Made by a program: the position numbers and the translations under genes
Shown: one piece after another, positions 22,342 through 28,099 of the stretch
Position numbering within the stretch: position 1 is the first letter of the stretch
How the letters are laid out: each line of letters starts with the position of its first letter
IMG/VR virus record: IMGVR_UViG_3300033141_002124
Location: 1 to 59,907 of that record
Source of the DNA: a virus
DNA: 59,907 nt
Strand: one strand, 5' to 3'
The notes under the pieces: generated by a model
Databases searched by the model: none
Told to the model about the DNA's origin: nothing
The model's input: the letters and a program-made list of their open reading frames with translations, nothing else

Positions 22342-22749
22342 ATGTATAAAATTAGATTAGGAAATCCAACACACGAATTTATGAAAATCTTCGATGAATT
22401 TTTTGATGAATCATTTGATATCACATCCAGAAAGTGCCCAGCACATGATGTAATTGAGAACGATGATGAATTCGTCATTGAGATGGAATTGGCTGGAGTT
22501 AAGAAAGATGATGTTAGTATTGATACCGAAGACGGGACGCTAACCATTGAAACCGAGCGCAAAAAGGATGAAACCAAAAAATATAGGCGCAATGAAATGT
22601 ATGTTGGTAAATATAAGAGGTCATTTATTCTTCCAGATAATGTTAGTACTGAAGAAATTAAAGCATCAATGGAAGACGGTATATTAACAGTAACAATTCC
22701 CAAGACTGTTGATGAAACCAAAAAGAAAAAACAAATCGTGATTAAGTAA
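22342..22749 (+). CDS. Hsp20 small heat-shock chaperone
   Basis: A 135-residue alpha-crystallin-family protein. The domain runs from about residue 38 to the end, with ELAGVKKDDVSI, the GTLTIE strand, the KRSFILPDNV segment and the late DGILTVTIPK motif. Small heat-shock proteins hold unfolding proteins; phage copies are known in T4-like phages, where they are thought to assist assembly or stress tolerance. It is the only plus-strand gene between 5661 and the right edge. Neither of the two main promoter types precedes it, but a sigma-54-like site does. It converges on the ArdC-like gene at a shared terminator. Confidence 0.92.
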   Translation: MYKIRLGNPTHEFMKIFDEFFDESFDITSRKCPAHDVIENDDEFVIEMELAGVKKDDVSIDTEDGTLTIETERKKDETKKYRRNEMYVGKYKRSFILPDNVSTEEIKASMEDGILTVTIPKTVDETKKKKQIVIK

Positions 22750-22766: not shown

Positions 22767-22799
22767 AAAAAGAGGTCACAAATTGTGACCTCTTTTTTT
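22767..22799. terminator. Bidirectional terminator between Hsp20 and ArdC-like gene
   Basis: AAAAAGAGGTCACAA pairs with TTGTGACCTCTTTTT, with T-tracts in both directions. It serves the two converging genes. Confidence 0.85.
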
Positions 22800-24195
22800 A
22801 TGCTTGCGGTTCTTGAGTTTGTTGTGATTGTCCCATGCTGGCTTTAGCTGCTTGGAACTCGTCATCATATTTATCGATTTGTTTAAGGATAAAGTTACTC
22901 ACAGTACTAATTGTTGAAATATTTTCTTTAATTAACTGCTTACTATTCAAACCACCTTGTGCTTGCCATAATGCCATGTATGTTGGGTGATGGTCTGCTG
23001 GTAAACCAAAGTGTTTACAAAGTGTTGCAGAAACGGTTTCTGCCTGTATTTCCTTAATTTGTTTTATTTGTCCATAATTTAATTGACCTTTGGCTTCAAA
23101 ATATTTCTGTGCTCTATCATAAAAACGACCACCTTTTTGATGTAACATATCATGTGCCCATTCATGAAAAATTGTTGAGGCAGCACCACTTCCACTTGCA
23201 TCAGCACTAACATTTATTTGACCCTTCCTACTCCAACCACCCTCACCTGCCGTTGCTGGGTCTTGCGTTACCCTAATACCCATTGCTTCAAGACTTTTCT
23301 TAGCAATACTGAACAATGCCACAGCATCTGCTCTTTCATCATTACTACCTTTCCAAAGCGGTTCATCGGGAATCGGGTCACCTGTAGTATCAGCAATATC
23401 GAAAACCACACATGGTTTAAAACCAATATGCTTAATGTCTTTTCTGGTTCTAATCGCATCCATCTTACCACTATCCATTCTCTCCTGACCATTCTGAACT
23501 CTTTTAACATACTCTCTATCTGACCTTTGCTGGTCTAAAGTGTATTCAGCCAGTTTCCCACTTCTGGGATTACGATAAAATTTATTTCCACAGTTAATTG
23601 TTATTGCTTTATTTAAATCAACAACAGTTCTATTAAAATCTTTTTTCCATTTATTTTTACCAGCAACTTTAGTTGCATTAGGATTTTGTAAATAAATAAA
23701 CATGATGTTATTGAAACTGTATTGGTGAAATTTGCTTGAGAAATTTAAGAATTTCTGGAGTTCAGCAGTTGCTGCTCTTTCATCGGTTGCATTGGCAATG
23801 TCATCAATATATTGCTCCAGATTTGATTCGAGTTCGGTTTTGGTTTTAAGAGGAATATCTGCCCCCTGTACCTCGGCTTTAAATCCTTCGAGTTGATTGA
23901 GAAAATCCTCAAGGTCACCAGTTTGACCACCTTGTGTTTCTAATTCTTTGTTGATTTCTTTTAATTTATCAACCATTGGTTTCGTTAATTTATTCCCAAA
24001 TACCCACCACTCTTTGCCGTTCCATTTAAATCCGAGAGGACCCAACTTACTGGCGACTTTCTTGGTTTCCATGTTTTGGTCAGACACTACTATATAACGA
24101 GTATATGGATTATGAGGTGGTTTCTTACCCTTAAGTTCTTGTTTTTCAAGATTAACGTATTCAAAGATATTTTCTTTACCCATTGTTTCAAGCAT
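22798..24195 (-). CDS. ArdC-like antirestriction protein (ssDNA-binding plus zincin)
   Basis: A 465-residue protein combining two parts known from ArdC of conjugative plasmids. An ssDNA-binding-type segment around residues 152-185 (FHQYSFNNIMFIYLQNP, KNKW) is followed by a C-terminal metallopeptidase-like domain with HEWAH at 344-348 and a downstream Glu helix (EIQAETVSA, 381-390). The first 75 residues contain a GFKWNGKEWW module also seen with DNA enzymes. ArdC-type proteins protect incoming DNA from host restriction. A late-type element four bases before ATG 24195 (16 before ATG 24183) suggests it is made late and might be packaged and injected, which is inference. Confidence 0.75.
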   Translation of the reverse strand: MLETMGKENIFEYVNLEKQELKGKKPPHNPYTRYIVVSDQNMETKKVASKLGPLGFKWNGKEWWVFGNKLTKPMVDKLKEINKELETQGGQTGDLEDFLNQLEGFKAEVQGADIPLKTKTELESNLEQYIDDIANATDERAATAELQKFLNFSSKFHQYSFNNIMFIYLQNPNATKVAGKNKWKKDFNRTVVDLNKAITINCGNKFYRNPRSGKLAEYTLDQQRSDREYVKRVQNGQERMDSGKMDAIRTRKDIKHIGFKPCVVFDIADTTGDPIPDEPLWKGSNDERADAVALFSIAKKSLEAMGIRVTQDPATAGEGGWSRKGQINVSADASGSGAASTIFHEWAHDMLHQKGGRFYDRAQKYFEAKGQLNYGQIKQIKEIQAETVSATLCKHFGLPADHHPTYMALWQAQGGLNSKQLIKENISTISTVSNFILKQIDKYDDEFQAAKASMGQSQQTQEPQA

Positions 24196-24199
24196 TTTT

Positions 24200-24208
24200 T
24201 ATAAATAC
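24200..24208 (-). promoter_or_regulatory. Late-type element GTATTTATA
   Basis: Four bases before ATG 24195, or 16 before the alternative start 24183. Confidence 0.7.
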
Positions 24209-24213
24209 TTGAA

Positions 24214-24885
24214 TTATTCGTAAATTATCTCTGGATTATTCTTTTTTAGTTTAGTCTTTATATAATTAACTTTATTACTGATTGTAGAACTCGTGACATT
24301 AAACTCGTTTCCGATTTCGTTATAACTATAACCTTGCACATATTTCATGTCAAGTAACGTAAAATCTTCTGGTGATAACTGGTCTGATATAAAATTAATT
24401 GAACTACAGTTCTCAAATTCGGAATCTGTACCACAATTAGTAGTTGTATATGAACCACTACCATTAATCGCTCCAGTATTGGTTGAAGTAATGAAACTAT
24501 TATCACAAGTAATATCTGCTCCTGTTGTTGAATATGAGTACACACAATTAGTATTGCTTCCCGTAAGAGTAATTGTTGTGTTTCTCCATTTATCAATCAT
24601 GTGATTCTTCGCAACACTAAAAACCCATGACCTGAATTTTGATTTGGTTTTATCAAATGTCTCTAAATTCATGAATACCTTAATCATGATTTCCGACACA
24701 TCATCTTCAAGGTCATAATAAATAGAGTACTTATTCTTTAAAAAATTTCTAACAGATTGTTTATATTTTTCGTATAGTATTTCCTGCGCTTGTTGATTTC
24801 CATTCAGGATACTTTGAATCAGGTCTATATCTTCCTGTATATTTCTTATCATATGGTTTTTGTAACTTTTGAATAAAGTAATCAT
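24214..24885 (-). CDS. RNA polymerase sigma factor (ECF-like), candidate late sigma
   Basis: A 223-residue sigma-70-family protein. Region 2 spans about residues 35-101 (LYEKYKQSVRNF, the DLEDDVSEIMIKVF core, FRSWVFSVAKNHMIDKWR). Region 4 spans about 169-216 (LSPEDFTLLDMKYVQGYSYNEIG, then the VTSSTISNKVNYIKTKL recognition helix). They are joined by a 55-residue Ser/Thr/Asn/Gly-rich linker with four cysteines (114, 127, 151, 160). It is the only sigma factor seen here and sits among replication genes near the Mre11-Rad50 gene, as T4 gene 55 does, so it could read the GTATTTATA elements. It overlaps the primase gene by 125 bases (92 if it starts at 24852). Confidence 0.85.
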   Translation of the reverse strand: MITLFKSYKNHMIRNIQEDIDLIQSILNGNQQAQEILYEKYKQSVRNFLKNKYSIYYDLEDDVSEIMIKVFMNLETFDKTKSKFRSWVFSVAKNHMIDKWRNTTITLTGSNTNCVYSYSTTGADITCDNSFITSTNTGAINGSGSYTTTNCGTDSEFENCSSINFISDQLSPEDFTLLDMKYVQGYSYNEIGNEFNVTSSTISNKVNYIKTKLKKNNPEIIYE

Positions 24886-26064: not shown

Positions 26065-26613
26065 TTAATATCTTTTATGCTGCTCTAAAAACGGGAAAAA
26101 TTTAATCATGCGATTGAGGAAACCGGGCGTATAGATTCTAAAATTACCTATACCACGATTATCAACACCCATTTTGACGAAATTTTCTTGTAATTCATTG
26201 AAGAGGTCAACAACCAGTTTGGATACATTACCATCATTCGAACCACCACTTGCTTTAAGTGTTTGGTTTTCAATCTTAACCACATCCAATTCAGCAGTTA
26301 AGGCTTCATTTTTCTGATTAAGTAATGTAACTTGTTCTTCAAGCCATTCAACACCTTTAGGTTCTTCAGGGGTTGGTGTTTCATCGAGCACAAGAAGGTC
26401 ATCCTTTTTTTCGAGAGTAACAATTGGAGAATCCTTAAGTAATTCTTTAACTGTTTCTTTTGCTTTAAGGTCTCTTTCTTCTTTAGCAGTGAGTTTCTTA
26501 ACAGCAGGTTTCTTTGCTGCTGGTTTTCTTGTCGTTTTCTTTGCTGCTGGTTTTTTAGCAGCAGGTTTTTTTGTGGTTTTTGCTAAACCAACTACATCAT
26601 TTTTTGTTGCCAT
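26065..26613 (-). CDS. Histone-H1-like Lys/Ala/Pro-tailed coiled-coil protein
   Basis: A 182-residue protein starting MATKNDVVGLAK at ATG 26613, one base before the upstream stop codon ends. Residues about 13-45 are repeats of KKPAAKK type, like histone H1 tails or AlgP. A coiled coil follows (about 90-125), and a conserved-looking C-terminal domain (about 135-182) ends FFPFLEQHKRY. Basic repeats suggest non-specific DNA binding, perhaps in DNA compaction or replication. It is co-transcribed with a phosphoesterase and the zinc-ribbon protein. Confidence 0.65.
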   Translation of the reverse strand: MATKNDVVGLAKTTKKPAAKKPAAKKTTRKPAAKKPAVKKLTAKEERDLKAKETVKELLKDSPIVTLEKKDDLLVLDETPTPEEPKGVEWLEEQVTLLNQKNEALTAELDVVKIENQTLKASGGSNDGNVSKLVVDLFNELQENFVKMGVDNRGIGNFRIYTPGFLNRMIKFFPFLEQHKRY

Positions 26614-26614
26614 A

Positions 26615-28099
26615 TTAGTCAATTATTAAATTTGTATTTAAATGAGCGACCAAGCCAAATTCGAAGTTCCAAACGAAACCATCTGCTGCTTTCACTGAAC
26701 CAACGTATCCTTTTTTGTGATGCCATTCTTCAGTACCAGTCAAACTTGACAAATACCTGATGGTAACACCTAAGTCTTCATTTAAAAGTCTTGATTTATT
26801 TATATCATATTGCACGGTTCTCTTCCTATGAATATGTCCAAGATGCCATTCATGGAATTTTGTTACACTCCACAGTGGTTTGGATTGAATATCGGTAGCC
26901 ATTAACATTGGAAGACTTGCTTCTTTTTCTTCACTACCATGAGTGAGTCCAAGTAATAGATTACCGTAATCATAATATTTTCTTGGTGACGCATGATTAT
27001 CAATGCTTATTGTTGGGTCATCTTTGAACCATGCTTCCAGATAACTACCCAAGTAGTAACTGCGTTCGAAGTCGTGGTTACCGGGGATGACCACTATGTC
27101 AATCGGAACACCAGCTTGTTTCATTAAATTAATTGCATCAACAAGTAATCGTGTACCAACTTTAAATGTCTTCTGCCATCTCAAATCTTCGTCTTGTTGA
27201 GTTCCCTTGGTTGTGGTATTCTCCATAGTATCACTATTAAAGAAATCGTTTCCAACGGGGAATAATATTCTTTCATAATTAAAACCACTTGCGTTTTGCA
27301 TGAGTTTTTCAATTGAAGTTAAGAAACGTTTACGTGCGATTTTAACATCGTAGTTCTCAAAAGTTTCACCACCCCATGCAAGTTTACCAATATGTAGGTC
27401 AAAGACACTGATTTCCAAGAGATTTTGTTCTTTGGTTTCTTGTGGTCTTTCTGGTGTCCAATCATATACAGGTGGTTCATAACCATTAATCATTTCTTGG
27501 AATATCTCACCAATCATTCTTTCCCTGACAACTTTCATGTCACGTTCCAAACGTGCTTTCACTTGCCAGTTTTGATAGGTTTTAACCACCCACTCACCAA
27601 ATTCCTGAACCTTCATTGTCACATCCCATTTATTGACAATATGAGAACTTACTTTCCAAACCTCAGTATCTACTTCAGTTGCAGCGAGTAATTGGTCAAG
27701 TGTTCTTACGTGGTCTTTTGGGTAGTGACTGCTACCAATCCACTCATATTCGGCTTCGTTGGCATTCTTTTGATTGAAAGTCTCTCTATTTCCTCCTTTT
27801 GGTAAGTCTTTGGGTTTATTAGGTTCTGATTTTTCTTCTGATTTTGAAGGTTCAATAAATCCCTTCATATTAATATAATTTTGATACGGATTTTGGAACA
27901 TGTTATAAAGGTTGATGTCCAGTTCACCATCATTAAACTTCTGATAAATCATCGCCTTCATATTCTTAACATAAGTGTCGGAAAATCCACATTTTACACT
28001 TGCTTCCTTTACCGACACTTGATTTTTTATTGCGTATTGTATGATTTCAACAGCATTCTCAATTCTTTTCTGTATTGATTTACTTCGTTTTTTTGTCAT
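26615..28099 (-). CDS. Calcineurin-like phosphoesterase with N-terminal HTH
   Basis: A 494-residue protein. Residues about 8-50 look like a helix-turn-helix (KNQVSVKEASVKCGFSDTYV), as in terminase small subunits. The C-terminal 270 residues are a metallophosphoesterase with all metal motifs: FDLH (D234, H236), GND (283-285), GNHD (340-343), THG (386-388) and GHIH (421-424). Such HTH-phosphoesterase phage proteins are predicted DNA nucleases or repair phosphatases. It differs from the Mre11 domain at 18828, so the phage has two. The upstream gap (28100-28175) has a host-type -7 element, and a late-type motif lies further up. Confidence 0.85.
   Translation of the reverse strand: MTKKRSKSIQKRIENAVEIIQYAIKNQVSVKEASVKCGFSDTYVKNMKAMIYQKFNDGELDINLYNMFQNPYQNYINMKGFIEPSKSEEKSEPNKPKDLPKGGNRETFNQKNANEAEYEWIGSSHYPKDHVRTLDQLLAATEVDTEVWKVSSHIVNKWDVTMKVQEFGEWVVKTYQNWQVKARLERDMKVVRERMIGEIFQEMINGYEPPVYDWTPERPQETKEQNLLEISVFDLHIGKLAWGGETFENYDVKIARKRFLTSIEKLMQNASGFNYERILFPVGNDFFNSDTMENTTTKGTQQDEDLRWQKTFKVGTRLLVDAINLMKQAGVPIDIVVIPGNHDFERSYYLGSYLEAWFKDDPTISIDNHASPRKYYDYGNLLLGLTHGSEEKEASLPMLMATDIQSKPLWSVTKFHEWHLGHIHRKRTVQYDINKSRLLNEDLGVTIRYLSSLTGTEEWHHKKGYVGSVKAADGFVWNFEFGLVAHLNTNLIID

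What the first reader, a model, noticed from the sequence alone, without database searches (positions are those of the whole stretch)
22798..24195. Late-expressed ArdC-like antirestriction protein
An ArdC-type ssDNA-binding segment plus a complete HEWAH zincin motif, with a late-type element four bases from the ATG. Plasmid ArdC acts on entry into the recipient. Late synthesis in a phage would make sense if the protein is packaged and injected with the DNA.
Basis: partly seen in the sequence, partly recalled or inferred. Interest (0 to 1): 0.65.

Follow-up and report, generated by a model that had tools for sequence, protein, structure and literature searches.

The report
Phage ArdC-like protein, probably head-packaged
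A T4-like giant phage known only from metagenomes carries a divergent member of the plasmid ArdC antirestriction family; a late-type promoter, a start-site hairpin like that of T4 lysozyme and a capsid-targeting-like N-terminus suggest that it is made late, packed into new virus heads and delivered into the next host cell.

Summary
ORF 22798-24195(-) encodes an ArdC-family protein: an ArdC-N region plus a gluzincin with HEWAH and a third ligand, Glu378. The family profile finds R388 ArdC first among solved structures, and the AlphaFold model matches it best (Z 10.5).

Three corrections. (1) The real start is 24183; the ATG at 24195 is ATA in three orthologues and lies inside a hairpin. (2) The "late element" reads GTATTTATA on the coding strand, 16 nt from the true ATG. 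It is genuinely sense-polarised (13 genes sense, 0 antisense) and forms the 5' arm of a conserved 11-bp hairpin beside the start codon, as at T4 lysozyme gene e. (3) R388 ArdC needs neither donor expression nor its protease for antirestriction, so an active-site mutant is a weak test.

On packaging: a jumbo-phage clade shares this protein with an extra N-terminal domain. Its N-termini resemble T4 capsid-targeting sequences ending in L/I-x-E, the T4 prohead-protease site; near-complete relatives encode that protease type, and in several genomes such tags sit on unrelated proteins, including an ART-PolyVal.

Late, head-targeted, injected ArdC: about 0.5. Antirestriction itself is untested. New variant of a known kind.

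The parts
22798..24183 (-). ardC-like gene with corrected start (461 aa + stop)
   Evidence: ATG at 24183 aligns with the starts of L003, L019 and L024; the ATG at 24195 does not
24160..24183 (-). Residues 1-8, MGKENIFE: candidate capsid-targeting peptide ending in I-F-E
   Evidence: E8 invariant, L/I/V two before it in the aligned stand-alone members; residues 1-6 have pLDDT under 50 and the first strand begins at residue 10
23935..24156 (-). Residues 10-83: extra N-terminal domain (strand-strand-helix-strand-helix) absent from R388 ArdC; fold not identified
   Evidence: Conserved S34, E39-T40, G51-F52, W54, W59, N78 in 23 sequences; model pLDDT 76; best PDB Z 5.5
23380..23829 (-). Residues 119-268: ArdC-N (ssDNA-binding type) region
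   Evidence: hhalign to ArdC-like proteins of plasmids and phages, probability 100, E 5e-56; PF08401 in 37 of 41 members
22855..23343 (-). Residues 281-443: zincin (gluzincin) domain, HEWAH 340-344 and Glu378
   Evidence: Invariant H340, E341, H344, E378 in 41 sequences; Z 10.5 to ArdC 6sna, 8.4 to IrrE
24200..24208 (-). Late-type promoter element GTATTTATA
   Evidence: Sense polarity 13:0 in the window, 64:9 in G003; conserved in L003, L019, L024
24187..24213 (-). 11-bp hairpin UUCAAGUAUUU-AUAAA-AAAUGCUUGAA whose 5' arm contains the promoter element; ends 3 nt before the true ATG
   Evidence: z -4.6, 0 of 200 shuffles fold as well; two pairs change on both sides among four sequences
24214..24885 (-). 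Sigma-factor gene directly upstream (conserved neighbour; possible source of read-through RNA)
   Evidence: Pfam Sigma70_r2 1.9e-13; order primase-sigma-ardC kept in L003, L019/L023, L024

Best explanation
A late-made, head-targeted ArdC-family protein of a T4-like jumbo phage. Expression: it is transcribed from a late-type GTATTTATA promoter; read-through messages from the primase-sigma genes fold into a hairpin beside the start codon and are poorly translated, while late messages start inside the hairpin, lack its 5' arm and are translated (inferred by analogy with T4 gene e). Delivery: the short N-terminal peptide ending in I-F-E is a capsid-targeting sequence, trimmed by the gp21-type prohead protease; the mature protein is packed with the DNA and ejected into the next host (inferred). 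Action: the ArdC-N region binds DNA (single strands, ends) and helps to shield incoming DNA from restriction; the zincin has a complete active site and may cut the protein itself or a host target (inferred). Shown here: family membership, complete active site, corrected start, promoter polarity, conserved hairpin, and tag-like N-termini plus gp21-type protease in relatives.
For: Family. Promoter polarity. Hairpin: with the T4 precedent in PMC3014915. Packaging: S77 prohead protease in 7 of 13 records, including every record of 300 kb or more; Gp23 capsid protein in G003; [LI]xE starting at residue 14 or earlier in 17 of 18 stand-alone members against 20-24% of ORFs; invariant E8; tags of the same kind on unrelated proteins within one genome (G007 9 vs 0.9 expected, G012 4 vs 0.4, G009 3 vs 0.6), one of them an ART-PolyVal; T4 capsid-targeting and L/I-x-E rules from PMC9026906. 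Fast divergence, 37% against 60-71% for the flanking sigma, SbcCD and primase genes in L024.
Against: No virion, expression or activity data exist. The window's own tag is short and does not match the lysine-rich tag pattern (0 hits in the window). The conserved Glu also stands before the internal copy in fusion proteins, so it may be structural. [LI]xE is a weak motif, and its association with the promoter is weak. The gene sits among replication and recombination genes, not head genes, and the window holds no prohead protease, perhaps because it is a fragment. R388 ArdC works when made in the recipient.
Confidence: 0.5

Rival explanations
1. A late protease that is not packaged: it acts in the producing cell by cutting a host or phage regulator (as IrrE/PprI cuts the repressor DdrO), with the DNA-binding region for targeting.
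For: Complete gluzincin site; IrrE is the second-best fold match, Z 8.4; authors of the jumbo-phage survey suggest that such enzymes cut host proteins (PMC7824862); conserved neighbourhood of sigma factor and primase.
Against: Tag-like N-termini shared with unrelated proteins are not explained; late synthesis gives little time to reprogramme the host.
Confidence: 0.22
2. A replication, recombination or packaging accessory that binds single-stranded DNA during late recombination-driven replication; no antirestriction role.
For: Fixed place between primase-sigma and SbcCD in four lineages; ArdC-N is related to the Rad4 DNA-binding domains (PMC5512222).
Against: Much faster divergence than its neighbours; the more distant clade members show none of the tested neighbours within about 6 kb; replication functions are not expected to need a protease.
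Confidence: 0.13
3. The TATTTATA element and hairpin are chance features of AT-rich DNA, and the gene is simply co-transcribed with primase and sigma (early or middle).
For: GC is 33%; short AT-rich stems are common around such motifs; the controls on four sequences are modest, 12 to 26 of 500 shuffles.
Against: Polarity 13:0 and 64:9; no shuffle of the window sequence folds as well; element and stem kept down to 37% protein identity.
Confidence: 0.1

Closest known systems
ArdC of plasmids R388/pSa (PDB 6I89, 6SNA)
   Same: ArdC-N followed by a gluzincin with HExxH and a third Glu ligand; same fold over both parts (Z 10.5 and 10.0)
   Different: About 18% identical; extra N-terminal domain and N-terminal tag; encoded by a phage beside a late-type promoter
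Polyvalent proteins with ArdC-N and MPTase domains (Iyer et al. 2017, PMC5512222; ArdC-like enzymes of some jumbo phages, PMC7824862)
   Same: Same domain pair; injection with the DNA already proposed there; some relatives here are 820-1,090 aa fusions
   Different: Compact 461-aa form; capsid-targeting-like N-terminus, promoter-hairpin arrangement and extra domain are not described in the passages read
T4 internal proteins and Alt (capsid-targeting sequence, gp21 processing)
   Same: Short N-terminal peptide ending in L/I-x-E; gp21-type protease in relatives
   Different: Packaging not shown; peptide sequences differ; unrelated mature proteins
T4 genes e, soc, 49 and I-TevI: hairpin at the translation start
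   Same: As at gene e, the late promoter is encoded in the 5' arm of a start-site hairpin (PMC3014915)
   Different: Element is GTATTTATA rather than TATAAATA; mechanism not tested here

Membership tests
ArdC family (ArdC-N + gluzincin) | ArdC-N region | tested here: met
   hhalign 100%, 5e-56 to ArdC-like proteins; PF08401 in 37 of 41 members; the window protein alone is below the cut-off
ArdC family (ArdC-N + gluzincin) | HExxH plus downstream Glu as metal ligands | tested here: met
   H340, E341, H344, E378 invariant and aligned with R388 H201, E202, H205, E229
ArdC family (ArdC-N + gluzincin) | Same overall fold as R388 ArdC | tested here: met
   6sna Z 10.5 over 146 residues (rmsd 3.9), 6i89 Z 10.0 over 191 residues (rmsd 14.1, domains shifted); next IrrE 8.4. 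Foldseek alone not significant
ArdC family (ArdC-N + gluzincin) | Antirestriction activity and ssDNA binding | not testable with these tools
   Needs biochemistry and plating assays
Head-targeted (CTS) internal protein of T4 type | N-terminal peptide with L/I-x-E cleavage site | tested here: inconclusive
   17 of 18 members have it and E8 is invariant, but the Glu is also conserved before internal copies
Head-targeted (CTS) internal protein of T4 type | gp21-type prohead protease in the same phage | tested here: inconclusive
   Not in the 60-kb window fragment; present in 7 of 13 records, including G003, which carries a 68% orthologue
Head-targeted (CTS) internal protein of T4 type | Present in virions with processed N-terminus | not testable with these tools
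   Needs virion mass spectrometry
T4-type late promoter | TATAAATA on the coding strand | tested here: not met
   The coding strand carries GTATTTATA; TATAAATA in sense precedes only 2 of 63 window genes. It may still work like a late promoter
T4 gene e-type translational control | Start-site hairpin whose 5' arm contains the late promoter | tested here: met
   Stem conserved in four lineages with two double-sided changes; functional blocking not tested

The most novel reading that the evidence does not exclude
A group of jumbo phages uses interchangeable L/I-x-E capsid-targeting peptides to load a varied set of effectors (ArdC-like proteins, ART-PolyVal and others) into heads. ArdC is thereby turned from a protein made in the recipient into a virion-delivered one, and its early synthesis is blocked by a hairpin that contains its own late promoter.
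Probability: 0.35. Interest if true: 0.75.

Novelty: new variant of a known kind. Interest (0 to 1): 0.5.

Why it matters
If true, head-delivered effectors of uncultured jumbo phages could be listed from sequence alone by their N-terminal tag, and it becomes testable whether ArdC-type proteins protect phage DNA at the moment of entry, before any phage gene is expressed. It would also show the T4 lysozyme trick, a start-site hairpin that contains the late promoter, in a distant phage group and on a conflict protein.

Tried and rejected
Single-sequence searches against Pfam, PHROGs, NCBIfam and PADLOC gave no hit above cut-off; the NCBIfam mutarotase hit is far below its cut-off and taken as spurious. 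Pairwise BLAST to R388 ArdC failed and hhalign of the clade against that single sequence was weak; the family profile was needed. Foldseek alone found no significant PDB or BFVD match. The fold of the extra N-terminal domain stayed unidentified (best Z 5.5); my recalled idea of a HARP/DUF5710-like domain found no support. A general enrichment of N-terminal [LI]xE among all genes was absent and among genes with the promoter weak, so the tag argument rests on the family and on repeated tags only. Hairpins at other promoters are mostly short, so the ardC hairpin is not a general property. No isolated phage with the full clade architecture was found, and no paper on virion ArdC was found. The genome-contig scan could not run with the broad alignment and was not repeated.

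Full report
OBSERVATION. ORF 22798-24195(-) is real. Its orthologue L003 is 82% identical over the whole length; L019/L023 are about 68% and L024 about 37-40% identical. All three show that translation starts at 24183 (MGKENIFEYVNLE): the ATG at 24195 is ATA in each of them. The protein is therefore 461 aa, and residue numbers here use that start.

WHAT IT IS. Alone, the protein falls below every curated cut-off. A profile route settles it. tblastn finds related proteins, several of them annotated as ArdC-like, in 1,424 plasmid records, best E among the rows listed 3e-28. An alignment with some of these, used against IMG/VR, brings in a clade on large phage contigs up to 362 kb. Across 41 members the invariant residues include H340, E341, H344, E378, A381 and E382, plus S156, N159 and W179 of the ArdC-N region; 37 of 41 members hit PF08401. 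The family profile finds R388 ArdC first in the PDB, E 6e-4. The AlphaFold model (mean pLDDT 89, pTM 0.70) matches ArdC best (Z 10.5 and 10.0), then IrrE (8.4). Glu378 aligns with Glu229, a metal ligand in the ArdC-Mn structure (PMC7213743). Unlike R388 ArdC, the clade has an extra domain at residues 10-83 with conserved ET, GFxW and W, whose fold I could not place.

EXPRESSION. GTATTTAT occurs in the sense direction upstream of many genes (window 13 sense, 0 antisense; G003 64 and 9). The more distant G007 and G008 use ATATTTAT with the same polarity (77:14 and 62:12). It is thus a promoter-like element, though reversed relative to T4's TATAAATA. At ardC it forms the 5' arm of an 11-bp hairpin ending 3 nt before the true ATG. 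The hairpin is present in all four lineages and two pairs change on both sides (with only four sequences the shuffle control is modest, 12 to 26 of 500). It is one of the two longest stems at any GTATTTAT promoter of G003. T4 gene e has the same layout: early read-through mRNA forms an inhibitory helix, and late transcripts starting from the promoters there lack its 5' part and are well translated (PMC3014915). Here the upstream primase-sigma genes, kept in all four lineages, would supply read-through RNA. Shown: the element, its polarity and the conserved stem. Inferred: late timing and translational blocking.

PACKAGING. T4 internal proteins enter the head through N-terminal peptides of 10-20 residues, and gp21 cuts after L/I-x-E (PMC9026906 and PMC5694885). 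A gp21-type S77 protease is found in 7 of 13 records searched, including every record of 300 kb or more, and a Gp23 capsid protein in G003, the closest long relative. Members of the clade begin with peptides such as MKKLIKKFLYE/ALILK, MIDLIKKMLDE/ALILK, MLKNILNE/ALILK and MGKENIFE/YVNLE. In the aligned stand-alone members the Glu is invariant and the residue two before it is L, I or V; [LI]xE starts at residue 14 or earlier in 17 of 18 members against 20-24% of ORFs generally (the members are related, so this is not 18 independent events). Nearly the same peptide occurs on unrelated proteins within one genome: G007 9 observed against 0.9 expected, G012 4 against 0.4, G009 3 against 0.6. One G007 carrier, MKRLIKHLLRE/A, is an ART-PolyVal protein, the same broad class of enzyme as T4's injected Alt. 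For the window's own lineage the support is weaker: only an excess of N-terminal [LI]FE (4 against 0.6 in the window, 11 against 4.2 in G003). Six relatives are fusions of about 820-1,090 aa, in which the conserved Glu also stands before the internal copy. That fits polyprotein cutting but also a purely structural Glu, and I cannot separate the two.

FUNCTION. The most likely action is DNA protection in the next host: the DNA-binding region and the fast divergence (37% identity against 60-71% for sigma, SbcCD and primase in L024) fit a conflict protein. Iyer et al. 2017 state that pSa ArdC is transferred during conjugation, while the 2020 study says that export is not ruled out but not required, so the precedent is contested. 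Host-directed proteolysis remains a serious rival.

NOVELTY. Proteins with ArdC-N plus metallopeptidase domains in phages and conjugative elements, and the idea that such proteins are injected, are published (PMC5512222; PMC7824862 names ArdC-like enzymes in some jumbo phages). New here, as far as the passages read show, are the corrected gene, the hairpin-guarded late-type promoter, the extra domain, and the tag-plus-protease argument for head delivery.

Noticed in passing
L119:14155-16080 (-), relative G003; G012:C1:86918-88483: The S77 prohead protease of G003 is interrupted by a large in-frame insert with a weak Pfam Intein_splicing match (1.3e-4, below its cut-off). In G012 the protease match is likewise split within one 622-aa open frame.
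   Followed up: partly
L137:8451-8894 (+), relative G007: ART-PolyVal protein (7e-17) with the tag-like N-terminus MKRLIKHLLREA, lying in the same 20-kb stretch as the capsid and prohead protease genes.
   Followed up: partly
L025, L026, L027, L028, L033, L034: Fusions of about 820-1,090 aa with the ArdC-like module at the C-terminus; their N-termini follow another repeated pattern (MKKIKITKEQYxxL...GLIxE), and similar starts occur on other proteins of G007.
   Followed up: partly
window 24761-24885: The primase and sigma-factor genes overlap by 125 nt in different frames; the overlap is kept in L003, L019 and L024.
   Followed up: no
window 24214-24885 (-): The sigma factor holds a Thr/Ser/Asn-rich stretch between regions 2 and 4 (about residues 103-155).
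   Followed up: no
window 26065-26622 (-): Protein with a histone H1-like Lys/Ala/Pro-rich N-terminal part (AAKKPAAKK; weak Pfam HC2 match), a conserved neighbour upstream of primase.
   Followed up: no
window 22342-22749 (+): Phage-encoded Hsp20 small heat-shock protein (8.7e-27), convergent with the ardC-like gene.
   Followed up: no
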